Made by a program: the position numbers and the translations under genes. Under the pieces are notes generated by a model. The model saw nothing but the letters and a program-made list of their open reading frames with translations. It was not told where the DNA came from and searched no databases. Below are positions 10,693-43,411 of a stretch of DNA of 64,000 nucleotides, piece by piece. Positions within the stretch are counted from its first letter, which is position 1, and the number at the start of each line of letters is the position of its first letter. The stretch comes from Fragilariopsis cylindrus CCMP1102 (taxonomy: Eukaryota > Bacillariophyta > Bacillariophyceae > Bacillariales > Bacillariaceae): assembly GCA_900095095.1 (NCBI GenBank), contig FMBT01000322.1, forward strand, positions 124,001-188,000. The letters run 5' to 3'.

Positions 10693-12452
10693 TTATGGTA
10701 AAATAACTTCTGACACGACATGAATAATACCATTACATGCAATACTATTATAATCGATAATTTCAGGACGTTGAGTATCATCATTCCCACGTCCATTTTG
10801 ATATGTTTTACCAGATGTAGTACCACTACCACAAACAGTACGTGTATATTTACCATTTGTCATTTCAATCTTTTGTGTACATACTAAATCCTCATACATA
10901 ATGATTTCATTACTAATAGTATGTCCAAGTAATACATTTGTCAAATCATCCGGAATTGGTGGTGCTTTATTAAATGCCTCATTGGTTGGTGCAAATACTG
11001 TCCACAATCCATCATCTAAATCATCCAACAGTGCCGTTTCTTCTAATAAACTACATAACATTGAAAATGATCGTAAGGAACAAACAATTTCTGATATTGA
11101 TGAACAATCTTCTTCTTCAGTAGTTGAATCATCAGACGAATCATCGAATGATGGATTGATAATTGTAGGTTCTTCAGTTGGACTTCCATCTATCTCAGTA
11201 GTTGAATCATCAGTAGTTGAATCATCAGTAGTAGTAGTATTAGTATCAATAGATGATAATCCAGTAGTTGAATCATCAGTTACTGTTGAAACTGGCGCAT
11301 CAGTTGCTGTTACTGGTGCATCAGTTGCTGTTAAAACTAGTGCATCAGTTGTTACTACACTAGTATCAAAAGATGATAATCCAATACTTGGTGCATCAGT
11401 TGCTGTTAACACTGGTGCATCAGTTGCTGTTACTACTGGTACTGGTTCTTCAGTTGTTACTACTGGTACTGGTTCATCGTCAGTAGCACGATCTGTATCG
11501 TCTTCATTAGTATCAGTACCAGTATCAGTATCAGAAGAATCAGGAATAGGATAAGGAAGTTCAATAGAATCAGGAATAGGATAAGGAAGTTCAAAATCAA
11601 GCATAACTTGATCAAGGATATGAACCTTATTATAATGATTGTGTGATTTTGCGATTGGTAATGTTAATGAGAGATAGAAACGAAACGAAAGACAAAAATG
11701 TGAGTTGCAGTTTGTAGTTTTTCCGTATATAGTACGGTATGTAAAAGATAAAAGATTTTGATCTGGCATTCGATTCGTGGACAAACAAACAAACAAACAG
11801 AGCATTCGAAACAGAGCATTCGAAACAGAGCATTCGAAACAGAGCATTCGAAACAGAGCATTCGAAACAGAGCATTCACAAAATAGCCGTGATAACTAAT
11901 ATTTTTTTAACTTACAACACCATTACATGCTTGTATATTAGCATTAATAATTGTTGGCAATGCATCATCAGTATTGTATCTTCCTTTTTGTGCATACGGT
12001 ATAACTTTCTTTTTACATAATGTACGTGAATCTTCACCATTTGCCATTTCAATTAAATTCGATCCAGCGACACATGGTAATTCAGTTGTGGATAAGACAA
12101 TACCAGGTATGACATGAAATAGTAATAGATCTACTAATGGTACAGTATCACTTGTATTAAAGACTAAATAATCTAAATTTTGACGTCCTAATTTTTCAAA
12201 TGCCTTATCATTTGGGGCAAAAATTGTCCATGATTCTTCATTTAAATCATCATCCAATTCACTAATTTTAGTTGCTTCACATATAGCTTTTGTATTTAAA
12301 TTATTATCTTCATCACATAAAATATCTGTAATTGGTGTACAAGGTGTTGTAGCAACTACTTCTTGTCCATTAACAACAATAACAACAGCAGGCATACCAC
12401 ATAGAGCAATGATGACAGCGAAGGTTGTGGTTAATATTGAATACATTGTCAT
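10693..12452 (-). CDS. FAS1-a: secreted two-domain fasciclin protein (2 exons)
   Basis: Exons are complement 11916-12452 and 10693-11625, giving 489 residues. The donor GTAAGT and acceptor AATAAG join ACNGV to VHILDQVML in phase 0, which completes the first FAS1 domain. A signal peptide is followed by FAS1-1 (about 35-190; WTIFAPNDKAF, then NGVVHILDQVML), an acidic Thr/Ser/Asp linker with repeated ATDAPV and TTDDSTT units, and FAS1-2 (about 352-489; WTVFAPTNEAF, NGIIHVVSEVILP). Both domains carry six cysteines at matching places. FAS1 domains generally mediate adhesion in extracellular matrices; this protein is probably secreted and wall- or matrix-associated. The 290-bp intron contains a 14-bp minisatellite. 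A frame that runs unspliced through part of the intron lacks the signal peptide and is not the native product. Confidence 0.85.
11798..11880. repeat. 14-bp intronic minisatellite
   Basis: About six near-perfect head-to-tail copies of AGCATTCGAAACAG lie inside the intron of FAS1-a. Each unit contains the palindrome TTCGAA. No spacer-repeat architecture exists, so this is a tandem repeat and not a CRISPR array. Confidence 0.9.
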
Positions 12453-13020
12453 TGTGTTATTCTATTCGTCGTGTTTTGGTTGTTTTTGTTACTACCGTTC
12501 AACTGTGAGATAGGAAGTAGGGAAAGTGAATGAATGAATATATCGAAGAATCGAATCTAGACTAGAATCGATGCGTGATCGAAGCTTTGTTGTGTTGTGA
12601 TGATGTTATAATATGTGGAGTATACCGTGTATAATTGTACTTCGTAAAGAACCGGTATGTACAGTAAGTACAGTAAAAAGTTTAAAAATATGTGAAGATA
12701 GTAAATTCCAATAGATAGTAAACTTTTTTTTTTGAAAATTGCTCAGCTCGCCTGCTACTAGGCAGTTAAAATTATCGCAAACGCGAGACATACCGGTATG
12801 ATATCATTATTTTGAATTTTAATTATGATGATTATTATTTTGAATTTTTATTATGAGGCAGCATGTCAAAATCTCATACACGCGCATGTCATCCATATAA
12901 CGGTATTTACTGTCAACCTAGCACTACCTACCGTATTACAGTGTACAGTATTTTTGATACTGTAAGCAATCATCCATATATAACGGTATTTACTGACAAC
13001 ATACCTACCTGTCGAAAGCA
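12453..13020. promoter_or_regulatory. FAS1-a upstream region with short direct repeats
   Basis: This region upstream of FAS1-a contains two copies of a CCATATA(TA)ACGGTATTTACTG stretch (near 12893 and 12971) and two copies of a TATTTTGAATTTT(A/T)ATTATGA stretch (near 12828). The duplicated blocks could be tandem regulatory sites or simple local duplications. No coding frame is convincing. Confidence 0.35.
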
Positions 13021-14705
13021 TTGAATAAATCTCCGCGTGGAAACAGTAATATTAATATAAGAACTAAATCATGCCCAAATTTTACTAGTATTTGTTAGTC
13101 TAGTATAATATAATAACAACTTTAGCATCAAATATATACACCTAAAAAGTCATTTTTTTAGAAAAATAAACCATAAAGTTTACAATTGACCTATTGGATG
13201 GAGGACTGTTCTATTCCTTAGTCTCCTAAGCCTACTGGTACCTCATAATGTAGGCGCACACACGGCAGACATCAAATAACCCCCAAAAATGGTGTGCCTT
13301 CCACAACAGCAAAATGAATTTCATTCCACAACCACAACAGCAGAAAAGTTGGTCAGAGGCAGACACAATATTCTAATACACTATGTGGATGCTAGTACAC
13401 CCAACCCATCTAGTGTTGTCCACTGTAAACCTTTTATATGAGATAATTTGTGGCTCATTTTTTCTAATCAAAAATCATGTTGTTGTTTTTGTGCCTTCCA
13501 CACCAGCAAAATGAATTACATTCCGCAACCACGCAACCACAACAGCAAAAATGTTTTTGGAGGCAATCACAATGTTCTAGTACTCTATGTGGATGCTAGT
13601 GCACCCAATCCATCTAGTGTTTTCCTCTGCAAACCTTTCAAATCTTGTTATTTTTGTTTGTGCAACAACAGCAAAATGAATTTCATTCCGCAACCACAAC
13701 AACAGAAAGTGGTCAGAGGCAAACACAATGTTCTAATACACTATGTGGATGCTAGTGCACCCAATTCATCTGTTTTTGTTCTCTGCAACCCTTCCAAATG
13801 AGATATTTTGCTGTTCATTTTGATCTTGTTATTTGTGTGCCTTCAACACCAGCAAAATGAATTACATTCCGCAACCACAGGAACAGAAATGTTGTAGGAG
13901 GCAAACATAATGTTCTAGTACTCTATGTGGATGCTAGTGCACCCAACCCATCTGGTGTTGTCCTGTGCAACCTTTTCATTTGAGATATTTTGTGGCTCAT
14001 TTTTTTCTGATCAAAAATCTTATGGTCCAAGATATATTACATACATTTCATTATTTAAACATACCACCAGGTAAAGTAGAACACAAAATTGATGCACTGT
14101 CTTCACTAGGACATATTACTTGTGAATGGGAAGCATCATCATCCCAACCCATCATTATTTTGGATGTAATTGCAGTTTACCCCTGTTTTCCAACATTACT
14201 GATAAAAACCAATCAAGGACAGTACTTAAAATAGTCACTGTTGGTTGGAAAATGATCCAAGCAAAAATCTACAATAACAGCACATTAGATTCTCACAAGA
14301 AGAACACAACAGTACAGTTGTTGCTGTTGCTGTTGTTGTTATTTCAATACTATTGTTTAGTTAGTTTACTACAGGAATAGTAGATATTTAAACTAGCAGC
14401 ATGCGATTTTTGATCAGAAATGAGAACAACACCAGATTAGATTGGTCAGGTGCACAAGCATCCACATAGTGTACTAGAACATTTGCAACATCGTATTCGC
14501 TTCAAACAACTTTTCTTTATTCCTGTGGTTGCGGAATGAAATTCATTTTGTTGGTGTGGAAGGCACAAAAACAACAACATGATTTTTGATCAGAAATGAA
14601 CAACAAAATATCTCATATGAAAGGGTTGTACAGGACAACACCAGATGGGTCAGGTGCACAAGCATCCACGTAGTGTACTAGAACATTGTGTTTTCCTATT
14701 CCCTG
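13021..14705. mobile_element. Fold-back repeat element, copy 1
   Basis: The left boundary TTGAATAAATCTCCGC is shared with a second copy at 43918. After about 250 bp of shared leader come four tandem units of about 170-200 bp (near 13290, 13490, 13660, 13838), each with AGCAAAATGAATT(T/A)CATTCC and CTATGTGGATGCTAGTGCACCCAA. A core (about 14010-14165) is also shared with copy 2. From about 14404 to 14700 the same unit reappears in reverse orientation, so the element ends as an inverted repeat of its own array. It encodes no evident protein. The layout resembles fold-back-type non-autonomous DNA elements; the family is not established. Confidence 0.6.
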
Positions 14706-16874: not shown

Positions 16875-19413
16875 CTAGGGCAGTAATGTCTCGAACGATT
16901 TCATTGTCGACTTCTCCTCTGCTGCATTGTCAATGGTTCGACCCATTACGACAGGACGGAATAACATCACAGCATCCAATTCGTGTATGACGCCGTTACA
17001 CGCATTCACGTCGAAATAAACGATTTCTGGCGGGTTATCTGCGTTGTTGAAATTTCCTTTTTGATATACAGGAACTGGGTTACCAGGCGAGGTATCTATA
17101 CACAACGTACGGCTATCCTTGCCGTTGGTCATCGAGATTAAATTCAGACCGGCGTCACAGGGTAAATCTCTTTTGTACAATGCCTGTTCGGCAACGGTAT
17201 GAAATAGTAATAGTCGTGACAATATTCCCGGATTTTTCGTCAAGGTTTGGACGTACGAAGGAGGAAGTTGCAAAAATGCACTGTTTGTAGGAGCAAACAG
17301 CGTCCATGTACCGGTGCTTAGGGCTCCGTCAAGTCCGGTCGATTTAAGACTTCCGCAAAGAATAGAGCTGCGTTTGTACGTGCGTGTGTAGATTGATCGA
17401 CGACGACAGAAAGTAGAGGAAAAAAGACACGGTAAGAGAAGTGGACTAATTGCTGGGAAATTAACATACCCGATTCATTCACAATTTGATTCCTTCTCTA
17501 AGCCTTACTTACAAATCGGAGTCACTGCATACAACTTCAACAATTGTTTTACAATTTTTTGTTGATGGACTCGGTGGCCACGTTGTTACAGGAGCAGGTG
17601 ACGATTGAGATGGTGCATTAGGAGCGGATGTCGGGGGGAAGGTAGCATCTTTGGCAGGAATACCAAGTTCGGTTACAGAACTATACAACATAATTCCATC
17701 AACAACGTGGATGATTCCACTACAACTTTCGATATCGGTTTCGATGATTTCTGGTTTATCAAACACGGAGTTTCCGTTTCCTTTTTGATACATACCTTGC
17801 CGTCTGCATACGGTACGACTTTCCCAACCGTTCGACATCTCAACCGTATCCATACATTTCAGATCTTGACTATACATAACTTTATCACCAACAGTATGGA
17901 AGGCCAAAATGTTTGCCAATAAATTAACATTCGCTGGATCGAACAAATATGCAACTGCAGCCTCACCAAGATCTTCGAATGCCTTATCGGTGGGTGCGAA
18001 TACAGTGTATTTTACATTATAGTCGTCAAAGAGTTCATCGAGTCCTGTCGCTTTGATAGCAGCACAAAGATGAGTAAATTCATCTGATCCACATACAATT
18101 TCAGTAATCGAACAGGCTTCCGGCCTCACCGTAGTTGGTACCGATGTTGGTGCTACTGTTAGTTCTGCAGATGTTGATGGTGCGAAACTTTCAGTCGCAT
18201 TTGTCGTTAGCGCTGACGATGGGTATGTAGTAGATGAGGGAAATGATGATGACGAATCGGATGTTGCAGGTGCTGTTGAACCGGAACTAATTGGAGACGG
18301 GTACCAAAAACTAACTGGAGAAGGTGTCGGAGAACTAGTCGGAGAAGGTGTCGTTAGTTGATCTACGTTTGTAGGACCTAAAGTAACGACAGAACCACGA
18401 TCTACGTTTGTAGGACCTAAAGTAACGGCAGAACCACTACCCATCGGAGTTGGACTATTGGACGGTGATATCGATACCGTCGAAATAGTTGTGACAGATT
18501 TATAACTGTTAGCGTATCATTTTTATTTACCATAATAAAATTTAGGATATCGATTAATATAACAATAACGAAGACAAAATTTGTGAGAAAACATTCAACG
18601 GCATAATCGTTCGTAAATAAGACGTTTGAATGAATATTGTACTTACAGCATCACTTCACTAGATTGTGTTGAGGATATGGTATTAATAAAAGAAGACGAA
18701 TAGAAGAAAGAGTATGTCATATGTTAGAGCATATGTGTGCACAACGAAATATAACAATTATATAGTATAGTCAACTCCTATCAAATCTAAATCTGTCATC
18801 GCACGACGAAAACGGTACACGAGATAGATGAGATAACATACCTAATAACATGGACCATTCCATTACATGCCTCGATGTCTGTTATGATTAGTTCTGGCCA
18901 TTTTGCTGCTAGATTATTACCCACACCATTTGTTGCTAGATTACCCACACCGACTTGGAATGTACGATCACCTAAACATACCGTTATACTTGCTTCATCA
19001 TTCGTCATGAATAGTCTTCCATCACATGATAAATCGGTACCATTCAATGCCTCACCTGGAAATGCATGAAATGCTAGCAGGTCTACTATTGCTCCCATAT
19101 CATCAGTGTTATCTCCACTAGAACCACCATCACCAATTGTTAATCCTAATAATGAATTCTTATACTCTTCTGGAAGTGTATCGAATGCCTTATCGGTAGG
19201 CGCAAAAAAAGTCCAGTCTTCTTCGCTTAAATCATCTTCTAATCCAGCTAATTTAATAGCATCACATAATGTATCGGTTGCTACCAGTGGATTATCGTAT
19301 TCATTTTCACAAACAATTTGTGCGATTGTGGAACAATTTTGATCAGAGTATATACCTTGTCCATTGACAGATAGTACTGTAAACGCTACTAAAGATAAAG
19401 ATAGTGACTTCAT
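16875..19413 (-). CDS. FAS1-b: secreted three-domain fasciclin protein (4 exons, 12-nt microexon)
   Basis: Exons on the complement are 18842-19413, 18647-18658, 17513-18505 and 16875-17367, giving 689 residues with all phases matching. FAS1-1 (about 26-195) is split at its last strand: HVI is joined to SEVML by the microexon. A linker with two TLGPTNVD units and Pro/Ser/Thr stretches follows. FAS1-2 spans about 326-472 (YTVFAPTDKAF, GIIHVVDGIML). FAS1-3 (about 509-660) is split between VCSDSD and FSILC. Each domain has six cysteines at equivalent places. The signal peptide is residues 1-19. A short charged tail ends the protein. It is expected to be extracellular with an adhesive or matrix role from family knowledge. 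Without splicing the region looks like three unrelated fragments. Confidence 0.85.
18647..18658 (-). other. 12-nt microexon of FAS1-b
   Basis: The sequence TGAAGTGATGCT is bounded upstream by ..CACAATCTAG and downstream by GTAAGTACAA on the coding strand. It restores S-E-V-M-L between exon 1 (ending HVI plus AG) and exon 3 (T, then YKSV). SEV(M/I)L is the expected end of a FAS1 domain, as in the second domain of FAS1-a. The flanking introns are 183 and 141 bp. Confidence 0.75.
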
Positions 19414-24474: not shown

Positions 24475-25747
24475 ATGAAGTTGAATACCTTCGCTCTCTA
24501 CTCCATTGCCATGGGTGCAATGCTGCAATTTGATTCGTCTTATGCTGCTGGTATCCGTAACAATCGTCGTCGTCTTCAAAGTGACGACAGTTGTCTTTCA
24601 ATCAGTAAGTAGCTTCGTATACATAATACTCGTAGAACCAACTGTACTCAACTGTTTGATACCACAAAGTATTCAAAACAATTTCAATACATATCCATCA
24701 TTATTTCTTTCTCATCGGCAGTCTATATCATTCTAACGTTCTTGCTGTTTCTTTTTATATACAACAGCGGATTACGTCTGTTCCAATAAGGAATACTCCA
24801 CCCTTTGTGGTGCACTCAAGAAGTACGAGCTAGCTGACACATTACAGGATGGTGCATGGACACTCTTTGCACCAAACAACGAGGCGTTTGAGGGACTTTC
24901 GTCATCTTACGCTGATGATTACTTGGAAATTTTGAAGTTCCACGTTCTCAAGGAAACTGTGATGTATGATGATTTGATCTGTATGAACAAGGTTGAAACA
25001 GTTCTAGGTCAAAACTCGAGAACTAAGTGTTCCGCGAAAGGCAAAGTCCAAACGGGAGCCGGTAATCTTGTCGTTGGAACCATACCTATGATCACGGACC
25101 CTGATATCAAGGGGTGTAATGGAATCATTCAGGGTATCGACGAGGTGATGCTACCAAAACTCAAGAGTACCATGGTCGAAGATGATGGATCAGAGGACAC
25201 TCCAATCGGTGGCCCGCCCACAAATATGTGTTCATTGGTACAGAACGACTTATTTTTTAACGTTACCACAGTGAACGAGTATGGTAGCGATAATATTTAT
25301 CAGATCTTTCCAGGACCGGAACCGATCGGATCCAATAAAATTTGCGAATCTAAACTTTGGACACCACCGGACGATGGGCCTCCCCCATATAAGCATTGTA
25401 TTGGTGACGTTGTGAATACGAAAACTTCTTTGTATTCCGATAGATCCTTGACGAACAAAGTTGCTTTTGTTACGTCGACGAACGCGGTAACCGCTATCAA
25501 CGACTTGGGCGCCGCCATCTTTATTGCTCACGGCACGCTTAGTTCGTTGGTAGAAACAAGCAGCGAACTAGTTTATCTAGGAAATTTCGAACACGCAGAA
25601 TACGGTCCTGTTTTTGACGGTGGTGCGGAGGATCTTGCGGTCGTAGGCGGAACCGGGAACTGCGATTATAACGTTGGTACTATTAATTTCGATGTCATTC
25701 CAGACGAAGAATTTGGAATCGTACATGCGGTTGTGAAGACTGTATAA
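24475..25747 (+). CDS. FAS1-c: secreted FAS1 plus dirigent-like barrel protein (2 exons)
   Basis: Exons are 24475-24604 and 24768-25747, giving 369 residues. The donor ATCA|GTAAGT and acceptor ACAACAG|CG join SI to TDYVC in phase 1. Residues 1-24 are a signal peptide. A FAS1 domain spans about 39-175 (WTLFAPNNEAF, CNGIIQGIDEVMLP) with the six-cysteine pattern. After a short acidic linker, residues about 196-369 have a beta-strand-rich pattern with TSLYSDRSLTNKVAFVTSTN and EDLAVVGGTGNCDYNVGTINFDVI. The GGTG turn and its flanks resemble dirigent/allene-oxide-cyclase barrels. The fusion is inferred from pattern, not from a search. GC content and codon use in the second exon are higher than in most neighbours. 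It is the only FAS1 gene of the window on the plus strand. Confidence 0.8.
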
Positions 25748-25980
25748 TGCTCTACTATTAATTAAAAGATAAGGTTTGGTGTTAGATTTACAGGGGGTTC
25801 CGTCATCGCTGCGTGCTTTCACGATCATCCAGATATACCGATATACAATAGTATGCACAAACAATACAAACTACAGGAAATAAATAATAATAGTTATAAA
25901 ATTATGATATTCCATCACCGATGCTTCTTAGGGAAAAAGAAAGGATTACTGCTACCAATATTATAACGGCTAGTCTCTTT

Positions 25981-26367: not shown

Positions 26368-27297
26368 TTAGAATCTTCCTGATCGAATGGGAGGGGTAAT
26401 CGATGTACGGTCGGTGTAGCAGGACTGCCTTCTTGATTTGATACGTTCGTGTGCTGATGAGGGATGATGGACCTAATGAGGATGAGGACCCGTTCTGCTG
26501 ATGAGGGCCTTATAGGAACCGCATCGCATTGGTAACAATCCTTGTCACAAAACTAACAAACAACAATAATCGAATCAATCGAAGAGAATCGAATGAATCG
26601 AATGAAGGAATGAATCGAATGAATCGAAGTTCATCGAATGAAGAAGATTCATCAATCCTTTTGTCAGCAATTGAGTCACGGGATTCGTTGACACTTACTT
26701 TAGCTACTGTATTAGCGTGCTTTTACGTTTCAAACATGATATCATTTTTTTGACAATTTGAGTGTAGTCGAGTGAGTCGAATGAAAAATAGATGTATGAA
26801 ATTCATCGAATGCGTTAAAAGCACGTGCACGTAACGGAAGTTATTGTTAAGCCCTCAATCACACAGTCACATTTCGGATACAATATCATGCCGAACCTCC
26901 TTTTTATGTGCCAAAGACAAGCAAAGACAGCAGAGGTAGTAGATGCTAACGCGCATCTCTTCCGTCGCTGAACACAAAAATCAGAGGAAATGAAAGCAAG
27001 AAATTAAATAAATAATTTTCATAGGCAACGCCCATATCTGATCTGATTTCTTAAGGTATATCTTATCTGCTACAGCAGCTTTTAAAACATACATTCGTCT
27101 TATTCTGAGTGTTATCCTATTTATTTCTGCAATAGTCTGATAGAGATAGACAGTCAGTCAGTCGCGAGTGTGTGTGGACGAAAAGAGAGGAAAGAGACAG
27201 AAGAAAAAGCAAGTGCATCGAATCGAATCGAATCGACGTAGCTAAAACGAAACCTAGATTTTTCATCCAGCCAACAACAAACAATTGATTCTATATC
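26368..27297. other. Spacer with (GAATC/GAATGAATC)n repeats, symporter leader
   Basis: Short GAATC/GAATG tandem repeats fill about 26565-26640, and a second (GAATC)n run is at 27218-27236 just upstream of the symporter start. A GTCGAGTGAGTCGAATGA motif lies near 26766. The frame across the repeat is repeat-derived. Nothing else is supported, although missing exons of the 25981 gene could be here. Confidence 0.4.
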
Positions 27298-30191
27298 ATG
27301 TCAGCAGTAACACCAGCAGTAGTAGTAGTAGATCCATTGATGTCGCTGTCACCTTCGCCGTCGCCACCGACGACATCGATATCGACATCGACATCGACTT
27401 CCAATAGTAATAATAATCGATCGTCATCATCATCATTTTTACTACTAGCCAGTGCAGTTGGAAGTGCTATTGGATTTGGGAATATATGGAGATTCCCATC
27501 ACTTATCTATAAATATGGTATTAATAGTGGTAGTGGTATTGTATTTATGATACCCTATTTTTTAGGACTACTATTCATTGGTATACCTTTGATTGTCAAT
27601 GAATTAGTATTATCATCACACTTACAGACTGGTAATGAAATCAACATTCATCATTATTTGAATAAACATACCAAAGGGATTGGTATTGGTTGTGTATTCA
27701 GTGGATTAATTGTATCCACGTATTATATAACACTTATTAGTTGGTGCATACATGTACTTATGATAACTCTTGGAGTCCGCATTGGTGGTGTACTGCAGAA
27801 TGCTGTATATTTAGCATTGACATGGATACTAGTCGGTTTTGGTCTACTATGGAATGTCTATAAACATAATAAAAATCATAAGAATAGGAATGTTATCTGG
27901 TACTACATGACAATGACAACTACAGCAATACCCATCATTATGTTACTGATTCTAATGATACGTTCATTAACATTACCAGGTGCCTATTCAAATGATTATG
28001 GTATAAAAAAATATTTTAGTTTGGCGGATATTCAATGGAATGATTTATCATCCGTATTGATAAATCAACCTGATATATGGTCTATAGCTATAGCACAAAT
28101 CTTTTTTTCAATTGGTATTACTGTAAGTATTTTATATTATCGGATGCTGCTATTGCTTGTTGTCGTGATTGCGATTAAGTCGAGTCGCGATATACTGTAT
28201 GCGCTTTCTAGGTAGGGGGATTGATGGTCGTTGTTGTTGTCTAACTTGAAATCTCGCTCTCGTTCTCGATCTCGGTGTCTCTTTCTCTCTCTTTCTTTCA
28301 TTCTCGGTGTCAATACCATCCGCTGCACTACACTGCACTGTACTGCACTGTACTGTATCGGACTGACTGTGTTGTTGTTATTTATCTACAGTTTGGTGTT
28401 CTGACAGTATTCGGTTCACGTATGCAGCAGAACAATTTAAGCTCAACATCAACATCAACATCACCAGCTGTTATTATAAACGGCGGTATAGTAGAAAATT
28501 CATTTTTGATTGTATTCATTAATACAGTCTTTTCATTATTAAGTGGTATTTCAACAATGGCTGTTATTGGTTATACTACACAAGAAATTGATAATAATTT
28601 TAGACCAGATACTACTGGTCCAGCATTATTGGTACGTATTGTCGTTGTCGTTGTCGTAGCCGTTGTTATATGTTATGGGTCGGTCTCCGTACCACTCCTG
28701 GATACCTAACTCACGATGAGGCATGCCTTCATCTAAGGTAGAGCCAGGCTATGGTACTAGACTCCTGGGCGCGATTCGACCATTTTGCAAGGACCGGGGG
28801 AACCCGTGACCACACAGCATGAGCTTCTCTGCTCAAACGTCTGGTATGACGATGGCCTCCTTTGCCAACAGAGGGAACGTGTTCTCGTTGTCGTCGTTGT
28901 CGTCGTGCCAAAAAATCGAAACAAACGTTATCTTACATATTATACTTGCCTTCATCTTTTTTCCTTCTGTTTCCTACCTGGTAATTAATTTATACAAATA
29001 AAATAGTTGGATGTATTCCCAACAGCATTAGCAACACTTCCTGGTGGAATATATTGGAGTCAATTCTTTTATCTAACTTTGATTTTAGTAGGTTTAAATT
29101 CATCATTTGCTTTATTAGAAGGTATAACAACAATGGCAATGCCGCTAACAACAGCAGATTCATCAGCATCATCAGCATCATCGTTCACAACAAAACAAGT
29201 GACTGTCATTATTGGTATTTGTACGATAGGATTTTTAAGTGGAATGATATTTACATCATATAAGATGATTGATACCATTGATTTTTATATGAATTATATT
29301 GTGTTATTTTTAGGATTTTGTAAGTCAATTACTACCGGATGGATCTATAATATGAAAAAACAAGTCACGAATTTAAATGGTAAATGGAATATAGTCTATA
29401 TGTACTTTGGTACCACCTTCTGTTCCTTTTTATTTGCATCATTAGTATGGTTTGGTGTGAAAGGGAATACATTCTTGTTAGGATTCTTTTCATTAATTGT
29501 TATTTATGGTAGTGGTATCTGTTATTGTTTATACAATTTACAGAATTTAATCAATGAAGATAATAGTATTAGTATGAAATTTTTACGGAATGAATTATTG
29601 ATGGGTAACATATTAGAATTACGTGATGAATTGTCATCGTCTGGTGTTGTTGATGGTACTAATAATGAATATAATTTACCATGGATATGGGCATTGTTAA
29701 TGAAACATTTTATACCACAAGCACTATTAGTATTATTTATTAATTTATTCTTTGAACAAACTGAATATGGTAATATTGAATTTGGTAATTACAATCAGTA
29801 TCAAACTTGGCCGTTCCAAGTCGTAGGTGTATCCACAGTATTATGTGTTATGGGTATGGTCTTTATTGGTGTACTTAATTCTAAAATTTATGATTTTCTT
29901 ATAACTGATCCATCATTATTAAAGAAGATCAGAACTGGAACTGGACTAATAGACGAAGAAGTAGGAGACGATGATGATTACGACAACGACGTTGAAATGA
30001 AAGATAGAACTAATTATAATCAAGGAGTTGGCGAGTCCAATTTTAATTATTTATATATGGAAAATTTAGAGAAACAATCACCATCGGAAAAGAAAATGAA
30101 TACAACTAGTGCAACACCAACAACAACAGCTACGGGTGATGGTTATGGTGAAGATACTACACATAAGGCTACGGATGGTGTATTGGCATAA
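27298..30191 (+). CDS. SLC6/NSS-family sodium-coupled symporter (3 exons)
   Basis: Exons are 27298-28122, 28392-28631 and 29007-30191, all phase 0, giving 749 residues. The N-terminus is Ser/Thr-rich and cytosolic. TM1 has the family signature GSAIGFGNIWRFPSL, with the unwound Na+-binding segment and the essential Arg, followed by IPYFLGLLFIGIPLIVNELVL (TM2). LTLPGA, then IWSIAIAQIFFSIGIT joined to FGVLTVFGSRMQQNN, matches the TM6-TM7 region. Exon 3 begins at the expected VFP.AL..LP block and carries the remaining membrane helices and an acidic C-tail. Family members move amino acids or related osmolytes with Na+; the substrate is not readable here. Intron 2 (28632-29006) contains a GC-rich stretch unlike the surrounding sequence. 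Confidence 0.85.
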
Positions 30192-30663: not shown

Positions 30664-30715
<52 letters not shown>

Positions 30716-30792
30716 AACTCAATAGCAACGTATACTTTTGTGACTTTATAGCAGTCGTCAAATACCATTGTTATTGTCCTTTTTCCATTTTA
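30192..30792. other. Convergent 3' spacer with (AAC)n tract
   Basis: A 3'-3' spacer between the symporter and the HMG/histone-fold gene. It includes an (ACA)n run of about 55 bp near 30663-30716 and a T/C-rich stretch near 30540-30620. No gene is seen. Confidence 0.5.
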
Positions 30793-32096
30793 TTATTTTG
30801 ATGTAAAATACGTTGTTAATGGTTTACTTCCAGCTGCAGCTGCTGCTGCCTTACCTGTCAAAACAGCAGCAGTAACGGCACCATTATCACCACCATCTTC
30901 TCCTTCACCACCTTCACCACCTTCTTCGTTGACGCCTGCTTTTAATGCATTAGCATTAGCTATTTTTAATAATTTTTGATTTTCTTTTTGGAGTAATAAT
31001 TCTTTGGTGATATCTTTAATATCCTCTTTTAAAAATAAAAATTCCTGTTTTTGACCAGACGAACAGATCTGTTTAATATCTGTACTATATATGGTACGTC
31101 GATTCGATTGAGATGCCACTTTCATGGAGTCAGTTCCAAGTTTCGATAAAAATAATTCTGTGGATTTCACAATTAAATTAATTCCTTCTTTGGATATCGC
31201 ATTGATATCCGGATCTAATTTGGCAATTTTTGATATTCTTGCAATAGGAAATATCAACGAATTTGGATGATCAGATGATAATGATGACGAAGACTGGTTT
31301 ATGTTTTCTACATAATCATCTCCCATTTGTTTTTTATATGCCTCTAATTGTTCTTTATATATCTCTTTTTCTTTGGATGCAATTAATTGAAATTTTTCTT
31401 TTTCCTCTATCGAAATTTCTTTCCATTTATGTCCAATACGTTTTGCCATTGTTGCAACACCTTTCTCATCTGGGAACTATAAGAACAGTAGTAGATATGG
31501 AATAGAAATAGAGGGAGAGAGAGAGAGAGAGAGAGAGAGAAAGGGGGAGTGAGTGAGCAGTCGAATGAGCGAGTGAGTGAATGAGTGTTTGTGAGTGAGT
31601 GAGTGAATGCGTGAGATTGTTATCCAGTACAGACCCAAAAAAAGGATGCTACATATCAGGTACATTTACATACCTCTTTACGAATAGAAGGACGCATATG
31701 ATCCGCAAAGATAAAATAGGCTGTCCTTGAACGTTTCATTGGACGTTCCACTAGAGGATTAGGAGGACTAGAATTTTTCTTTTCCTTTCCTTCAATTTCA
31801 TCAGCACTCTCCTTTTTTGTTTGATTGCTACTGTCATTATTGTCATTGTTATTGTCGTTGTCTTCTCCCTCATCCTCGTCCACGTCATCATCATCTTGAC
31901 CGTCATCAGGAGAATTTTCGGATCCTTCATTTTCCTCGACTTCTTCTTCAGCTGCTGCAGCAGCGGCAGTATCAGCAGCGGCAGTATTATTAGAATCATC
32001 ACTTTCCTTATTCACGATGGCATCATGCTCAGCAGCAGCAGCAGTTGCAACTACTGCTACTTCGTCTGTTTTTGTAGTATCCTCCACCGTCGACAT
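30793..32096 (-). CDS. HMG-box plus CBF/NF-Y histone-fold fusion protein (2 exons)
   Basis: Exons are complement 31674-32096 and 30793-31476, giving 368 residues. GAG|GTATGT and TTATAG|TTC join RPSIRKE to FPDEKGVATMAKRIGHKW, restoring an HMG box (about 117-193: RPMKRSRTAYFIF, then KWKEISIEEKEKF and YKEQLEAYKKQMG). An acidic Ala/Asp/Glu/Asn N-terminus precedes it. Residues about 210-300 read FPIARISKIAKLDPD...ISKEGINLIVKSTELFLSKL...RRTIYSTDIKQI, the signature of CBF/NF-Y archaeal-type histone folds as in NF-YC, CHRAC15 and DPB4/POLE4. The C-terminus ends KPLTTYFTSK, a degenerate PCNA-interaction-like motif. It is probably a nuclear chromatin or replication protein needing a histone-fold partner. 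The intron carries (GA)n and GAGT repeats. Confidence 0.85.
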
Positions 32097-32906: not shown

Positions 32907-33220
32907 CTATCTTTTCTGTTCACACAATTCAACGATACCATTACCGGTAGTATTAGTATGAGTATGAGAACTGTACATTTTATATAATTCTTTCATGAAT
33001 ATTGTATTATATAATGTATCCATTGTTTTATGCAATGATGAATGTTGTATATCATTCCATCTATATTTTGTTTTTGATTCAACATGTGGATTATGGATTA
33101 TATATCCTTTTGGTAATATATGAAATTCATAACTCATAAAACGTAAATGACTTATTAATTCAATTTTATTTTTACCATAACCTAATAATAATGGAAGAAT
33201 GTATATGGAAAGTAGAGAGG

Positions 33221-33255
<35 letters not shown>

Positions 33256-36147
33256 TGAACGGACGGTAGGTATGCGAAAAAATAAATCTGCAGAATATCA
33301 ATGGCACGATATAAAAAACATCAGGAGCAGCAAGAGATCGGATGGGTGGCATAGTAGTACAGTACACACACCACCACCATCAACAATTAACCAACTGTAT
33401 TGGCACGCTACGCAAACCAACACGGAAAACACCATCCATCCATATGTCATGGTAAACCATTTAGTAAGATACGTACCATAGAATCGTTCGTCGTAATATG
33501 GTGATAATGGTGCAATTCCTATTCCTATATTATTATTATTATTATTGTCGTTACCATTTACATCAACGACACCACCACCTTCTGTTGTTGTTGATAATTT
33601 TGTTGATGGACACCATTGCAATACAACGTACGGTTCATATCGAGCTGTATCAAAACATGGAATTTTACGAAATGATATGTCGCTGTCGTTATCTTTACTA
33701 TTATTATTGTTGTTATCATAAAATTGTTCATTTATCCATTGTTTCGATCGTGTTGTGGAATGACCATCCCAATTATATTCACTTTGAAACACAATGCAAT
33801 CTGATTTTGTATTATTGATAGATGATTTCGTACTGTAACATTTTTGTAATTCTTCAAATGTATGTGGAAGAAAGTTGTTGCTATCACTACCTTTTAGATG
33901 TTTGGAACAACTTACTTCATCTAAACAATCAATTGGTTTCCGACGTTCAAATGCTGGTACAACTAATGCGATATTGGTAGTAGCATTATTCGTTTTCCTT
34001 TGTTGTTGCTGTTGTTGAGTAGCATTTTTTATAGTTGTATCTAAATCCTGTGATGGTATAAAATCAATATCAATCATTAATACATGATTGGTTGTAACAT
34101 AATCTAATCCAACATTACGCATTCTATTTACAGGATATCGACCTTCTATACTTTCTATTGGATCAGCAATATATCGTATTATATATAAATTTGAACATCC
34201 TACAGCAGGACTATTAATTTCATTATTTTCGCCGCTGCCACCACTACCACTACCACTGCCACCACTGCCACCACCACCAAGTAATTCTTGTTCGGTACGT
34301 TCTAATATATTTAACAAAGTTTTACGTTCATTAGTACCTTCAGTATCACCAATAAAGGATTCGGAATGTGGCACAAAAACAACAGCAATAATTGGATCAA
34401 TATTCCATCTTTGACATGTTTCTTTTAATATCCACATTCTATCAATACTTGTTTGTACCACTAATGTTGTCGTTGTTGTTACAGTTGTATTATTATTAGC
34501 AGCAGCAGCAGTAGGAGTATCATCTGCAGTAGTGGTAGTAGTAGTACCACATGAGGAATACAATGCTGCTAATTTTTGTTGATTATGTATAGTACGTATT
34601 GGAAGTAACAAACTACCACTATCACTACCATTACCGTTATCATTTTCTGGTATTTCTTCAGCGATCCCACCCGATACTTCCAAAATCCGGTTATTGTTAT
34701 GACTATTACCACCAGCTACTGTATGGTATCGTTTCTTTTTCATCTGTTGTTGTTGTTTGTTGTTATTATTATTACCAGCATTGCTATCACTAACAACACC
34801 ATCTGTATTATCATCATCGCCACCATCATCATCTCCACCATCATCCCCATCACTACCACCATTGCCATCATCATCCCCACCATCATCTACATTTACATCG
34901 TTCTTCTCTTCGTCAGCGTTAGTGTCACCACCAGCAACAGTGTCACCACCAGCGGAGGATGCAACTGCAACGACAGCATTATTATCTTTGTTGTTGGTCT
35001 TCTTCTTCTTCTTTTCCGGCAGCTGCCGTTGTGCCTTCTTTTGTTTTGTTTCTTCTATTTCTTCTTTTTCCTTACCTTTCATTTTCTTTTTCTTCCCGTC
35101 GTCGTCGTGAGCAGCAGCATTAGCATTACCATTAGAATTAGCAGTGTTATTCCTCTCCTTCTCTTTCTTTTGATTATTTTCATTGATAATATCTTCGGCT
35201 GCGGTAGTAGTGGTGGCAATAATAATATCATTCCGATGAAACCATTTTGGTACAATTTCTTCTAATATTGTTGCTCTTTTTGTAGTTTCGGAATGATGTT
35301 TATTATGTTCTAACCTGGATCGTTTTATATCAATAGTATGTACACTGATCTTTTCTTCCTTAATTGATGGTAATAATGCAGTATCAAATCTTAGATCATG
35401 ATTCAGCCTTGCTAAAATTTCCTCTCCCGTTATACCATTATGGTCAACATGATGTAGAGTTATACCAAATAAAAGATAGGATGCCAATGGTACCAGTAAA
35501 TGAAATATAAATAAATACAGTACTAGAAAACCAACTAATAATCGTCGTGGTACACTGGACCAAAATAGACGATACATTATAGTATGTTTCTTTCTTCGAT
35601 ATCGTCTTTTATTATCAATCGTACCTAATAAAAACGAATTATTGATATTCATACAGGCTCTTGTGGTGGGACTTATAATCGTATTAGTTTTCGATTTCGT
35701 TGTGGAAGATGATTTATTAGTCATAGATAGTCTATCATTATTATTATTGTTATTATTATTAGGAGATGATGATAATGGAGATGGTGGTTGTGACTGTGAC
35801 ATCGTTGACTTTGACTTTGTTGATGACGTCGACTTTGGTTTGTATGTTTTTGGTAGTAGAGTATCACCAATACCACTAGAGATACTACTATTATTAATCG
35901 TGTTATCGCTACTTCTTTTTTCGTAAGCATGTCCTTTTCCTTCTCCTCGTCCTCCGTTGTTTGCTACTTGACGTATTCTATTAAAATAGGACCAGAATCC
36001 TCCTCTGGATGTTTTACTACTATCAGGTGATGCGTCATTATAATAATGCTGTTGCTGCTGCTGCTGTTGCTGTTGTTGAGGAGGTCTATCACCTTTTGCA
36101 CTACTACTTTTACGACGATGCCGTCGTCCAATGGATGAGGAATTCAT
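32907..36147 (-). CDS. LARGE-like (GT49-type) type II membrane glycosyltransferase (2 exons)
   Basis: Exons are complement 33477-36147 and 32907-33181, giving 981 residues from the first ATG (an upstream in-frame GTG is preceded by a stop). CTATG|GTACGT and TTATTAG|GTTATG join DERFYG to YGKNKIELISHLRF. A cytosolic Ser/Gln/Asn-rich tail precedes one hydrophobic anchor (LLVGFLVLYLFIFHLLVPLASYLL), giving Golgi-type type II topology. A long Asp/Asn/Lys-rich stem leads to the catalytic part: VQTSIDRMWILKETCQRW, NRMRNVGLDYVTTNHVLMID, then the metal-binding DxD in MIDIDFIPS, later FERRKP, PCFDTARYEPYVVL and, after the intron, FHILPKGYIIHNPH. This order matches LARGE/B4GAT1-type enzymes that build glucuronosyl/xylosyl polymers in animals. 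The acceptor in this alga is unknown. Confidence 0.8.
33182..33476 (-). other. Glycosyltransferase intron with (TG)n(AG)n tract
   Basis: This 295-bp intron of the glycosyltransferase includes a (GTGT)n tract that changes to (GA)n (33219-33256). Read through without splicing, it would end the protein shortly after DERFYG and lose the conserved C-terminal segment, which supports its removal. Confidence 0.7.
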
Positions 36148-37075
36148 AATAAAACTGTTGTCTAATATTCCACCAACTACTACCACCGTCGCCGTCACCA
36201 CCGCTGACAGCTACTATAATTATAGCAAGCAAAGAACAGAGATAGGAAGGAGAGAGATTCTAGGATAGAGAGCTTGCTTGCTTGTCGCTTTTTCTTACTG
36301 TACAATATATAAGGAGGATCAGAGAGAGTTAAAGAAGGACTCGACTCGACTCGTCAGTGTTGCGTTTCAATTTGTCTATTTGTATTTGTATTGTTTACTG
36401 TGTCTCTGTGATAAATGAATGAATGAATGCCGTTTTGATGTCACTGTTACTGTTGTTGCAGTTGTTGCAGTTGTTGTTGTTGCTGTTGTTGTTGTTGTGA
36501 CTTTATGCGAAAGCTAAGTTGTTGTTTTATTGCTTGTCTGTTTTACGATTAAAAATAAAATGAAAGGTTTTGGATCGACTCACTCGACTCAGTCGATTAG
36601 ACCAAACTCTTCGAATTCTCAATCAATTAACGTCAGTGATAGTAACACGGGATGTAGTAGGCATGTAAGTAAGAAGGGAAGAGGGGGAAGGAGGAAAAGG
36701 AAGCATTTCTTTTAAATTCTATTATTGAAATTAGTCGATTTGGTACAAAAAATTAGTGGTTTTGACCCCCCCACCAACACGACAGAGAGAGAATACGGTG
36801 TATGAATTCGAAGACAAGAAAGAATATATTTCGAAAAAAAAAAATTGCCAACACTAAGAACATTAAAGTTATACAATATATATAATTAGAAACAGGTCTA
36901 AAATAATGATAGGCAAAATTGGCAGTAAAGGCAGTAAAGGTGCTTTTGTTTTGTGTGGTGTGGCATCTACTGTACTGTACAGTACAGTACAGTAAGTTTA
37001 GATGGTGGTTCTAGTTTTCTTGAGAAAAATGGAAGCAAAAAATAGTAACAATTGTAATTGTTGGTTACGTTAGGT
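36148..37075. promoter_or_regulatory. Glycosyltransferase upstream region
   Basis: Contains GACTCGACTCGACTC (about 36339) and CGACTCACTCGACTCAGTCG (about 36573), a GTTGTTGCAGTTGTTG repeat (36450-36500), and a 22-bp perfect palindrome made of TACTGTACTGT and its complement (36968-36989). The small basic frame at 36530-36715 has no domain and is not called. Confidence 0.4.
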
Positions 37076-38905: not shown

Positions 38906-39960
38906 AGTGTACTAATACTGAACTGTAATAATAGACGACTCGTCACTCCTTAAAATTATTGAACTGTAGTAGTGCTAATACAGCTGTAGTAGAACAAATA
39001 GTATGTAGCCTATGCTGCGACAGTACAGTACAGTACAGTAGTGCTTCTATATATTATTGCTGAGATGAATACGGAAACAGGAAGCTCTATTTCTTTAAGT
39101 TACAGTGTATTATAGAACAAGATCGTAGTAATAAGTTACTGCATGTACGGCCATTTATTTTATTGATGTCATAATGTTCTCAATTTATATGTGTTACTAC
39201 TAATAGTACTGCTAAGTACAGTCTCGTGTTGTTTGTTTGTTTGTTGTGGGGATATGTGATGTCAAGATCCAAGATCCACCAAGAGATCCAAAAAACAAAA
39301 AAAAATCCATCTATTTTTCACGCACAATCAATAAATCACGCGATACAGTAGAACTTGAGACGTGCGTGAACAAGGAAAGCAAAAGCTATCACGCACGGTC
39401 GAAGCAAACACACCGTTGACATAATATTATACTAGTATATTTACCGTGTGGAGGAGCATGCCAGAGGAAAGTACAATATCCCTCAAAAGAAACAGTAATG
39501 TTGATGAATTGAAAGGTAAGAACAGTTCAGTTCAACCTCATACCTAAGTTCGGATGCAGGCAAATGATCCATTCATAGTTGAGAGCATTGATTGATGATC
39601 GCTTGCTTGCTTGCTTTGCCTGGATTCGATTCGATTCGACGTGTCAAAATCAGTTTTTTTTGTTGCCTTCTGGAATAGTAATCTCGACTATTGCCGGTAG
39701 AGAACATTGAATGGATTCTGTTTCGATTCGATTCGACGAGGGTTTATTACTATGTCACAACTTTGTTTGCTGTCGTTGCCTGCAAACTACAGAGAATAAT
39801 TTCACGGGTGTATTTATCGCGGACCAAGATTTAATTTATCGAGGCAGAACTTCCTTTTTAAATTACACAAAGACCGTTACTATCGGTGAACGCACGTACG
39901 TACGAACTGCGGCGGTGGCAAGCATACCCCTCGTCGAATTTCTAGCTGTTCATTCATCCG
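38906..39960. other. Upstream region of histidine phosphatase, no supported gene
   Basis: Holds an ACAGTACAGTACAGTA run near 39019-39040, a GATTCGATTCGATTCGA-type repeat near 39626-39642 repeated at about 39722, and a GCTTGCTTGCTTGC run. A 116-codon frame at 39711-40061 has no family resemblance and overlaps the remnant to its right. Confidence 0.35.
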
Positions 39961-39969
39961 CAATTAATA

Positions 39970-40790
39970 AATTAGACTGTCTTGAGAGTATTCCTACAAT
40001 AACTTTCGACTCTACTGTAAAGCTCTGGGAAACGCGCGTCCGGGGTCCGAACTTGGGGTAAAACTGGTTGCGTGTACATACATCTTGAATCAATCAACAC
40101 CAAGTGGAGAGCTAGGCATATGATTCGGTGTAAGAGACTTAATCTGAGAAAAATCAAAGGATTGGGCAGTTTTCGAACTTGGTGCGCCACTATATACAGC
40201 AATTGGATTGAGAGTGGGAATGAATCGAATTTGGTATATTAGTAGTTAGTTGTATTTGCAATGGGCTATGAACTTTGTTTCAAACTTGGCGAACCACTCG
40301 GAGCAAACAAGACTTGGAGCAGAGCTAGGTACAGCAGCACTCGGTGAAAAAAAAATTGGCCTGAGGCTTGGAGACATAGCACTGGGCAATGAACTCGATT
40401 CCAAACTCGAGAGTTTCGAACTTGGTGTACCACTTGAATCAAGACTAGGAACAGAACTAGATACATTAATAGGCAAAATACTTAGCTGGTGACTAAAAAT
40501 GGAACTTGGTACAGGTGCACTGAGTACAGCACTAGGCAATACATTGGATTCCGAACTCGGGACGGTAATTTGATGCGCCACTTGGATCCACACTAGGAAC
40601 AGTGCTAGGTGCACACAGTACTGGGTACAGCGCTTGGTATAGCACTAGCAAATGAATTAGGTTTCGAACTCGGAATTGAGTTTGCTTCGCCGCTAGGGTC
40701 AAGACTAGGAACAGAACTGAGAGCAGCACTCGGCGAATGAACTTGGCTTGAAACTCGGATTCGAAATAGGTACAGTACTACAGACCGGAC
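39970..40790 (-). pseudogene. Decayed Pro/Ser-repeat protein gene
   Basis: On the complement, units such as VPSLDSSGTPSSKLSS, SSLPSAMSPSLRPI and SAAVPSSAPSLVCSE recur roughly every 60-75 bp, but the repeat reading moves among all three frames (40246-40614, 40266-40466 and 40532-40729). No start codon or signal peptide joins them. Pro/Ser repeat chains of this sort are common in secreted diatom proteins. The frame changes indicate a host gene remnant. A tail of similar text with GAPSSK continues to about 40140. Confidence 0.5.
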
Positions 40791-41388
40791 GCGGGACTCT
40801 GGCTCGCTCTCTCTCTCTCTCTTCGTGGATGGTTTGATAGCACTCTATAAATTCATAGGGATTGATTCATTCATCCATTCATCCATTTGCCCGTATTATA
40901 ACAATCCAATTTTGTTTTAAATAATATTAGAACATTCTTCTTCTAACAAAGTCACGGAAAGCGTGCTGCTGTATTGTATTGTTATCAGACACTACTGTAC
41001 ACTTACTATAAGATAAATAATGCATGCATGTACTGTACACATACAACCACAGAATGCTTTCTAAAGGCAGTAGCCAATACTAGCTAGCTATAGTACTGGA
41101 GTAGATTTATTCAATTCTTTTCTCTTATATATAGTTAGGTCTTTATATTATGTTGTTTAGATTCTTCTTTTTATTTTTATACAAATACCCCCCAGGGTCA
41201 GTATTATTTAATTTTATTGTCTTGTTTTTTATTTTGTATTTATTATTGTTGATCATCAGATCAGTCAGTATGCGACGCGACGTTGCTTTGTATTCATTTT
41301 ACCCGTGTAGAATGAAAAAGCATAAGCAAAATATCCTTTCTTGCCTGCATTATTTTTGTTACATTTGTTTGTTTACGCCGTATTATAT
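40791..41388. other. Spacer downstream of FAS1-d
   Basis: A (TCTC)n run near 40805-40822, an ATTCATCCATTCATCCATT patch near 40866-40888, and GTAC-rich text near 41015-41045. The last 250 bases are T-rich and likely the 3' untranslated region of FAS1-d. The frame across 41150-41530 is antisense to that gene. Confidence 0.4.
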
Positions 41389-43411
41389 TTACCACCATAT
41401 TGGTAACATAACAGTATCAATAGAATGTATGATACCATTACATGCTATAATATTTTCCTTTAATATAATTGGACTATCCTTTAATGATATGATAGATTCA
41501 GTTTTTAAACCATTCCCTCTACCGACTTGATATTTATCCAATCCACGACAATGTGTGAAAGTAAAACCCTCATTACTCATTTTCAACCATTTGTTACATA
41601 TTAAATCATTAAATTCTAATACAGAATTTTCCACTAAATGAAAAAATAATAAATTGGACATATTATTCGGATTTAATTTATTAGGATTATCACCTTGTTG
41701 TGTGGATAGAACTAATTTTTCAAATGCTTCATCAGTAGGAGCAAATAAGGTCCAGGAACTTAATTCTAAAAAATCAATTAAACCCACCATCTTTATTGCC
41801 TCACATAATAATTTAAATCCATCGGTATTACAAATAATAGTAGCTATTGAAGCACATTGTTGTTGTGGTGGTGGTGGTTGTTGACGACCATCCACAAAAT
41901 CAACAACAACTGTATTAGGTTGATCATCTTCTACGTAATTTGGATCTTCTTCTGGATAGGCAAATGTTGGTTTTGCGGTTGGTGGTTTTTTTGTTGGTTT
42001 GTTTGTTGGCTTACTAGTTGTAGGATAAGGAGTTGGGTATGGAGTTGGATATAGAGTTGCGATTGGTGGTTTTGTTGGTTTGTTTGTTGGCTTTCGAGTT
42101 GGATGCAGACTTTTATTATCAGGATAATAATCATGATCAGGCTTCTCATGTGGATAATTGATTTCAGGAGTAGTAGGACTGAAGAAATCATCATGATCAT
42201 CATTTGGTTTTTGTGTTGGTTTGTATGCTGGTTCATCATTGTCGTGATGATCCTCATCGTCATCCTCGTGATGATCCTCATCTTCATCATCGTGTTCCTC
42301 ATCGTCGTGATGATCATCCTCATCCTCATGATGAACAGTATTATCAGGTAATTTCTTTGGTAATATAACTTGATTAATAACATGAATAATACCATTACAG
42401 GCAAGAATATCCACTTCTACAATTTCTGGTAACGCATCATCGTCGTTATTTCCACTACCCTTTTGATATACTTTATCACCATTCAAACATGCGGTACGTG
42501 TATCTTTCCCATTCGCCATTGGTACAAGCTCTGTACATTCTAAATCCTCACTGGACAATTCAATATCATCAACCGTATGATATAATAGGACATATTCAGT
42601 ATTTTCATTAGAGGATAATATATCATTGGTCATATTCATCGATAAATTACTAAATGCTTCATTGGTCGGTGCAAATAATGTCCATAATGATGAGTCATCA
42701 TCAAAGATGCTGTCGTATCCAATTTGTTTCATTACTGTACATAAAATAGTAAAATCATCATTGGAACAAATCATATCAGCTGTTATTTGTTTTGTTTTTC
42801 AATTTGTTTTTTCATTCATGTTGCGTTGGGTTGCGTTGTAGAGTAGAGTAGTGAATGGTAGAGTGGAGTGGAGTAGAATACAAAAAGTGATTCTCGTTAG
42901 ATGTATATTGGAAGGGAAAGAAAAAGGAGGATAACGAAACGAATCATATCGAATCGGAAACAACACAACAAAATGCAATTACACCACCACCACCACCAAT
43001 AATAGAATCGTGAAAGGCGAAAGACGAACTTTTATTATTATACGTACAGATTGAACGGCATTTCTCATTATTATGTGTTTCATCATCGTTCCAAACTTCA
43101 TCATCATCATCGTTCCAAACTTCAACATCATCATCGTTCCAAACTTCCTCATCATCGTCCAAAACTTCCCTATCATCGTTCCAAACTTCCTCATCATCAT
43201 CATCTCCATGTCCATCCCCATCATCTTCACTATGATCTCCAAATTCATGAATTTCCCAATCCTCAAGACTAAATCCCATTTCTTTCTCATCACCAGTAAA
43301 TTCAAATACTAAAGATGATACAGGTTGAATATAACTAATATGATGCTGAAATAATGATGCAATCATCATACTCATCATCATAACAACAACATGTCTTCGA
43401 TAATAAATCAT
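41389..43411 (-). CDS. FAS1-d: secreted two-domain fasciclin protein with His/Asp linker (2 exons)
   Basis: Exons are complement 43048-43411 and 41389-42779, giving 584 residues. ATCT|GTACGT and AACAG|CTGATATG join CRSI to SDMIC in phase 1, the same relative position as in FAS1-c. A signal peptide with Met/Val-rich core is followed by acidic repeats EVWNDDD (four to five copies). FAS1-1 covers about 118-265 (WTLFAPTNEAF, CNGIIHVINQVILP). The linker has a His/Asp/Glu stretch (HHEDEDDHHDDEEHDDEDED and similar), then PTRKPTNKPTKPP and YPTPYPTPYPT mucin-like repeats. FAS1-2 covers about 431-584 (WTLFAPTDEAF, CNGIIHSIDTVMLP). Both domains keep the six cysteines. The His/Asp stretch could bind divalent metals; the Pro/Thr stretch could be O-glycosylated. 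These two points are inference. Confidence 0.85.

What the first reader, a model, noticed from the sequence alone, without database searches (positions are those of the whole stretch)
10693..43411. Four FAS1 genes with eight domains sharing a six-cysteine pattern
After exon joining, FAS1-a to FAS1-d carry eight FAS1 domains. All eight keep cysteines at the same six places: C before the SI/TI stretch, (I/V)C about seven residues later, LC in the next helix, DLxC (or LPC/LSC), (R)TxC after the NG loop, and (A/S)C(N/S)G before HV(I/V)D. Typical FAS1 domains from animals, plants and bacteria do not depend on such a set. This looks like a disulfide-stapled FAS1 subclass expanded locally. The pattern is seen directly; rarity outside diatoms is from memory.
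Basis: partly seen in the sequence, partly recalled or inferred. Interest (0 to 1): 0.7.

Follow-up and report, generated by a model that had tools for sequence, protein, structure and literature searches.

The report
Three-disulfide fasciclin domains in a diatom
A diatom-like genome carries a distinct class of probably secreted adhesion (FAS1) domains whose six shared cysteines most likely lock each domain with three internal disulfide bonds; the class is spread over the genome and was not seen in the bacterial and viral FAS1 domains that were read.

Summary
After exon joining, four genes (window 10693-43411) carry eight FAS1 domains and all 48 cysteine positions are filled. The only other cysteines are one in the signal-peptide region of gene a and four in the tail of gene c. 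Silicon-transporter genes make a diatom likely. About 52 non-redundant domains of the class were found genome-wide. Of these, 51 form one clade apart from 44 cysteine-poor paralogs and 146 prokaryotic/viral representatives (SH 0.982; 0.968 without the cysteine columns). A second signature, QxGxGN...P, marks 40 of 51 members and 0 of 351 other domains. Cysteines are kept or lost mostly in pairs: C1 with C6 (one exception), C2 with C3, C4 with C5 always kept; six bacterial domains hold only a C1-like plus C6-like pair. So C1-C6, C2-C3 and C4-C5, all intradomain, are the likeliest disulfides. 'Expanded locally' is only partly right: by identity six of eight window domains have their best relative outside the window. 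Distances could not be measured (no coordinates). Other eukaryotes could not be searched, so rarity outside diatoms is untested. Filed as a new variant of FAS1.

The parts
10693..12452 (-). gene FAS1-a, 489 aa: signal-peptide-like start (by eye), domain a1, S/T/D-rich linker, domain a2; intron 11915-11626
   Evidence: 13 Cys = 12 in the domains + 1 in the signal-peptide region
11913..12284 (-). FAS1 domain a1 (genome HMM hit span; its first two Cys lie just upstream in the same exon)
10696..11070 (-). FAS1 domain a2
16875..19413 (-). gene FAS1-b, 685 aa: signal-peptide-like start (by eye), domains b1, b2, b3 with P/S/T-rich linkers; introns 18841-18506 (other joins possible) and 17512-17368
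   Evidence: 18 Cys = 3 x 6
18832..19275 (-). FAS1 domain b1 (hit span reads a little past the inferred splice donor, whose last exon base is 18842)
17686..18081 (-). FAS1 domain b2 (single exon; AlphaFold2 model m875f5fd1bf59)
16962..17366 (-). FAS1 domain b3, main exon (C1 and C2 in the preceding exon, joined over intron 17512-17368)
24475..25747 (+). gene FAS1-c, 369 aa: signal-peptide-like start (by eye), one domain, C-terminal extension with four further Cys; intron 24605-24767
24791..25156 (+). FAS1 domain c (C1 in the preceding exon)
41389..43411 (-). gene FAS1-d, 584 aa: acidic N-terminal region, d1, D/H-rich and KPT-repeat linker, d2; intron 43047-42780
   Evidence: 12 Cys = 2 x 6
42358..42756 (-). 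FAS1 domain d1 (C1 in the preceding exon)
41401..41820 (-). FAS1 domain d2; best relative C411:50052 at 61-62% identity
42780..43047 (-). phase-1 intron between C1 and C2 of d1, at the position inferred in 27 of 52 domains of the class
24605..24767 (+). the same phase-1 intron in c

Best explanation
The eight domains belong to a distinct, genome-wide class of FAS1 domains in a probable diatom. Each domain is locked by three intradomain disulfides: C1-C6 clips the N-terminal end to the turn before the last strand, C2-C3 clips the end of helix 1 to helix 2, and C4-C5 closes the open end of a beta-hairpin. Shown: the six positions, the clade, the mostly paired loss and retention of cysteines. Inferred: the splice sites; that the cysteines are oxidised and paired this way; that the proteins are secreted (signal-peptide-like starts judged by eye, P/S/T-rich or D/H-rich linkers) and serve as modules of the extracellular matrix or adhesive mucilage, where the staples would keep a small adhesive domain folded outside the cell.
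For: 48 of 48 positions filled in eight domains; proteins b and d have exactly 18 and 12 cysteines, a has 12 plus one in the signal-peptide region, none in linkers. Over 52 non-redundant class members: C4 and C5 in 51 of 51 aligned, and both visible in L089; C2 and C3 both present in 50, both absent in 2 (L035/L020, which keeps C1, C4, C5, C6; L065, which keeps C4, C5); C1 and C6 both present in 42 (5 of them with the nearest N-terminal cysteine 6-15 residues upstream), both absent in 8, C1 without C6 in 1 (L054), one unresolved (L092). Fisher p for C1/C6 1.4e-8, or 1.6e-5 if upstream-shifted cysteines are counted as missing; this ignores relatedness. Domains whose only two cysteines are C1-like and C6-like: six bacterial ones (exact columns in L104 and L163/L099; shifted by a few residues in L107, L109, L212, L265). 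One cysteine-poor diatom domain (L045) has cysteines exactly at C1 and C6, with a third about 34 residues upstream. Model of b2: best mean pLDDT 91.9, FAS1 fold; C10 ends helix 5-10, C19 is in helix 13-25, C89 and C105 flank the base of the hairpin around 92-106, C133 is in the turn between the last strands. 51 members are one clade, SH 0.982, and 0.968 without the six columns.
Against: No coordinates, so no measured distance. Parsimony gives only at least 4 changes for C6 and 2 for C1, so the paired losses are few independent events. Five members (L063_1954, L066, L078, L084, L050) keep C6 but lack C1 at its usual place. L054 has lost C6 but has a cysteine six residues before C2, the same spacing as in L079, which I count as having C1. 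Among 20 bacterial domains with a cysteine exactly at C6, only 5 have a C1-like partner; 14 have a cysteine just before the first strand instead and 1 another, so C6 is not tied to C1 everywhere; L221 has a C1-like cysteine without C6. One of the two C2/C3 losses (L065) may only be a missing N-terminal part. No proteomic or redox data.
Confidence: 0.8

Rival explanations
1. The cysteines form interdomain or intermolecular disulfides that cross-link the extracellular matrix, as in vertebrate TGFBIp.
For: [quoted passage not shown] the C5 column aligns with a cysteine of TGFBIp FAS1-2 (alignment).
Against: Gene c has one FAS1 domain and the same six cysteines; cysteines are kept and lost mostly as pairs within one domain; the linkers of a, b and d have none.
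Confidence: 0.1
2. Some of the cysteines coordinate a metal or a cofactor instead of forming disulfides.
For: C4 and C5 are invariant in 51 of 51 and are followed by an unusual QxGxGN motif.
Against: No known metal-site spacing (recalled, no call); signal-peptide-like starts point to an oxidising secretory route (inference); C1/C6-like pairs occur alone in bacteria.
Confidence: 0.05
3. The chemistry is as proposed, but the class is an ordinary, widespread eukaryotic FAS1 variant, merely not described in the papers that were searched. (This rivals the novelty, not the mechanism.)
For: Other eukaryotes could not be searched here; FAS1 is reported from about 140 diatoms (PMC10939406, passages).
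Against: 0 of 269 prokaryotic and 0 of 38 viral domains read have C2+C3 or C4+C5; the five PDB sequences shown (TGFBIp variants, periostin) lack the set.
Confidence: 0.35

Closest known systems
Fasciclin / FAS1 domain family (Pfam PF02469)
   Different: Six conserved cysteines and a QxGxGN...P signature.
TGFBIp and periostin FAS1 domains (animals)
   Same: Fold and the FAP and NG-xxH motifs.
   Different: TGFBIp has interdomain disulfides at FAS1-2 (PMC8220419, passages); the six-cysteine set is absent in the five alignments shown.
Bacterial FAS1 domains with one C1/C6-like cysteine pair (L099/L163, L104, L107, L109, L212, L265)
   Same: Cysteines at or near the C1 and C6 positions.
   Different: No C2+C3 or C4+C5; QxGxGN...P in 0 of 269 prokaryotic domains.
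Diatom fasciclins linked to adhesion and raphid species
   Same: FAS1 proteins of diatoms (PMC7335047, PMC10939406; passages seen).
   Different: The word 'cysteine' does not occur in the main text of either paper.
MPT70/MPB70 of mycobacteria
   Different: One disulfide only (recalled); positions were not compared here.

Membership tests
FAS1 (PF02469) | profile score over the curated cut-off | tested here: met
   four proteins, 74.5 to 179.2 bits against a cut-off of 22; each of the eight places over the cut-off
FAS1 (PF02469) | FAS1 fold | tested here: met
six-cysteine FAS1 class (defined here) | all six cysteines in register | tested here: met
   8 of 8 window domains; 36 of 52 class members have all six with C1-C2 spacing of 6-10 residues
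six-cysteine FAS1 class (defined here) | common ancestry apart from other FAS1 domains | tested here: met
   51-member clade, SH 0.982; 0.968 without the cysteine columns; the sampling holds no other eukaryote
six-cysteine FAS1 class (defined here) | disulfides C1-C6, C2-C3, C4-C5 | tested here: inconclusive
   supported by coupled loss and secondary structure, no distances or chemistry
TGFBIp-like interdomain-linked FAS1 | disulfide between neighbouring domains | not testable with these tools
   needs structure or peptide mapping
diatom-restricted class | absence from other eukaryotes | not testable with these tools
   no eukaryote collection was open; prokaryotes 0 of 269 domains, viral contigs 0 of 38

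The most novel reading that the evidence does not exclude
A eukaryotic FAS1 class arose once, perhaps within diatoms or stramenopiles, by adding two disulfides (C2-C3, C4-C5) to the C1-C6 clip that some bacteria use, together with a new QxGxGN loop next to the C4-C5 hairpin. That stapled hairpin would be a binding or self-assembly face of the underwater adhesive, spread through the genome as a module that carries its own phase-1 intron.
Probability: 0.3. Interest if true: 0.65.

Novelty: new variant of a known kind. Interest (0 to 1): 0.5.

Why it matters
FAS1 proteins are reported from diatom adhesion trails (as cited in PMC10939406, passages), but what makes a diatom FAS1 special is little described in the papers searched. 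A likely three-disulfide class with its own motif gives a concrete handle: a small module that could be expressed and tested for underwater adhesion and stability, and a marker that separates this class from the cysteine-poor, bacterial-like fasciclins in the same genome.

Tried and rejected
Local tandem expansion as the whole story: rejected. By identity six of eight window domains match best outside the window, b1 is closest to a1, and a1 is tied. By tree distance a1 is nearest to b3 and a2 to d1, d1 is tied, and the other five are nearest to domains elsewhere (tree with all columns).

Clade caused by the cysteine columns themselves: tested by removing them; the clade stays. All alignments come from one profile built on the window domains, which may still favour it.

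A bacterial source of the set: not found, within limits. The genome-contig scan used only a C6 motif that 19 of 49 own domains with C2-C6 match, so its 20 loci are a limited sample. The profile searches in five phyla (400, 392, 398, 396, 375 genomes) gave many more hits than the at most 30 loci per call that were read.

A model of the FAS1-c tail failed and could not be repeated.

L089 is in the count of 52 but not in the trees. L035's C1 was read from the upstream frame, not from a computed join. In one search a stricter table counted L054 as lacking C1 (p 7e-7); counted as L079 is, it has C1 and the value is 1.6e-5. Of several possible joins I chose by donor consensus and register.

Papers: searches. 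'diatom', 'FAS1 domain', 'cysteine': 4 papers; 'fasciclin', 'diatom', 'disulfide': 6 papers. Judged from titles and abstract starts, none is about a cysteine pattern of FAS1. Passages were seen of PMC7335047, PMC10939406, PMC8329260, PMC8307928, PMC8977783, PMC8220419, PMC6682723; PMC12803021 holds none of the terms sought. Most subscription journals are not held.
Full report
Observation. The window is part of contig C500 of a 67.9 Mb, 818-contig genome. The genome has 27 matches to the silicon-transporter family PF03842, the best at E 1e-226, which points to a diatom; the species was not identified. PF02469 hits eight places in the window. Gene models by GT-AG joins: a 12452-10693, b 19413-16875, c 24475-25747 (+), d 43411-41389. 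Pfam gives 2, 3, 1 and 2 fasciclin stretches. All eight domains have all six cysteines. In b and d these are the only cysteines (18 and 12); a has one more in the signal-peptide region; c has four more in its tail. Splice sites are inferred from sequence; for the first intron of b several joins are possible.

Genome-wide class. I fetched 84 stretches holding 160 FAS1 places, window excluded from fetching, found by three searches. The family search scored 150 of 222 candidates, so counts are lower bounds. A profile of the eight window domains gave 147 domains of at least 95 match columns, 95 after collapsing copies at 88% identity or more; 51 belong to the cysteine class and 44 do not. With the shorter L089 the class has 52 members, of which 36 have all six cysteines with C1 at its usual distance of 6-10 residues before C2 (8 of them in the window). 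Near-identical copies on different contigs, probably alleles, are collapsed.

Which cysteines go together. C4 and C5 are present in 51 of 51. C2 and C3 are both present in 50 of 52 and both absent in 2: L035/L020, which keeps C1, C4, C5 and C6, and L065, which keeps only C4 and C5 and may lack its N-terminal part. C1 and C6: both present in 42 (37 at the usual C1 place; L063_1954, L066, L078, L084 and L050 with the nearest cysteine 6 to 15 residues further upstream), both absent in 8 (L013, L033/L018, L046, L047, L065, L075/L081, L086, L089), C1 without C6 in L054, unresolved in L092. Fisher p is 1.4e-8 with shifted C1 counted, 1.6e-5 with shifted C1 counted as missing, and 8e-4 for C2/C3. These ignore relatedness: parsimony counts at least 4 changes of C6, 2 of C1 and 2 of C2/C3 on 51 tips. 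Further support comes from domains with only a C1/C6-like pair: L104 and L163/L099 exactly, L107, L109, L212 and L265 with small shifts, and L045 of the diatom itself, which has one more cysteine further upstream. Against a fixed C1-C6 partnership: of 20 bacterial domains with a cysteine exactly at C6, 5 have a C1-like partner, 14 a cysteine just before the first strand, 1 another; and L221 has a C1-like cysteine without C6. Within the diatom class the simplest pairing is C1-C6, C2-C3, C4-C5.

A second signature and one clade. Q111, G113, N116 and P123 of the profile occur together in 40 of 51 class members, 0 of 44 other domains of the genome, 0 of 269 prokaryotic and 0 of 38 viral domains. 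A FastTree of 51 + 44 + 146 representatives puts all 51 in one clade, SH 0.982, and 0.968 when the six columns are removed. All alignments come from one profile built on the window domains, which could favour this clade somewhat, and no other eukaryote is in the tree.

Shared intron. A phase-1 intron at C1-x-[ST]-I^x-D-x-x-C2 with a GTAAGT-like donor is inferred in 27 of 52 members, among them members that have lost C1 (L033, L046, L047). This fits an old eukaryotic class better than recent bacterial transfer (inference). The 44 cysteine-poor domains do not form one clade; their largest pure clade holds 20. Some lie in long frames with tandem domains, such as the 928-aa frame of C63. Transfer of FAS1 from bacteria to diatoms is reported in PMC10939406 (passages).

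Local expansion. Best relatives by identity: d2-L057 62%, c-L058 58%, a2-L046 50%, b3-L049 48%, d1-L091 47%, b2-L011 46%, all outside the window; b1 is closest to a1 at 42% and a1 is tied between L032 and b1. By tree distance a1 is nearest to b3 and a2 to d1. The cluster is therefore old, and local duplication explains at most part of it. C411 holds relatives of both c and d2.

Outside the genome. Read were 181 prokaryotic loci (one genome-contig scan; one search of 6 genomes; five phylum searches over 1961 genomes, at most 30 loci each) and 42 viral-contig loci: 269 and 38 distinct domains; none has C2+C3 or C4+C5. tblastn found 190 plasmid records, all under 60% identity, not inspected residue by residue (best listed 35.6%), and no phage record. 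A second viral scan gave 19 loci, not analysed.

Function. Signal-peptide-like starts (judged by eye, no predictor), P/S/T- or D/H-rich linkers and published diatom FAS1 biology (PMC7335047, PMC10939406; passages) make secreted matrix or mucilage adhesives the likeliest role. That step is inference.

Noticed in passing
window 25220-25744 (+): C-terminal 175-aa extension of FAS1-c with four cysteines; no Pfam match and no second copy found in the genome.
   Followed up: partly
window 11795-11878: 14-nt tandem repeat (AAACAGAGCATTCG) inside the FAS1-a intron; one minus-strand frame over it reads as repeated CFECSVSNALFRML.
   Followed up: partly
window 30793-31476 (-): Reading frame with a partial HMG box followed by an NF-Y/CBF-type histone fold.
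   Followed up: no
window 33298-36210 (-): Frame with a glycosyltransferase family 49-like (dystroglycan) stretch, between FAS1-c and FAS1-d.
   Followed up: no
window 27289-30191 (+): Exons of a sodium:neurotransmitter symporter family gene.
   Followed up: no
L029 (G000:C108:20362-29541): About six tandem copies, roughly 1.09 kb apart, of a cysteine-poor FAS1 pair, at least 88% alike.
   Followed up: no
L009 (G000:C40:36958-44477): Two very similar domains of the six-cysteine class in opposite orientation about 5 kb apart.
   Followed up: no
L094-L098, L100-L106, L108, L111 (mostly Actinomycetota by record title): 14 bacterial FAS1 domains with C6 plus a cysteine just before the first strand, a different two-cysteine arrangement.
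   Followed up: partly
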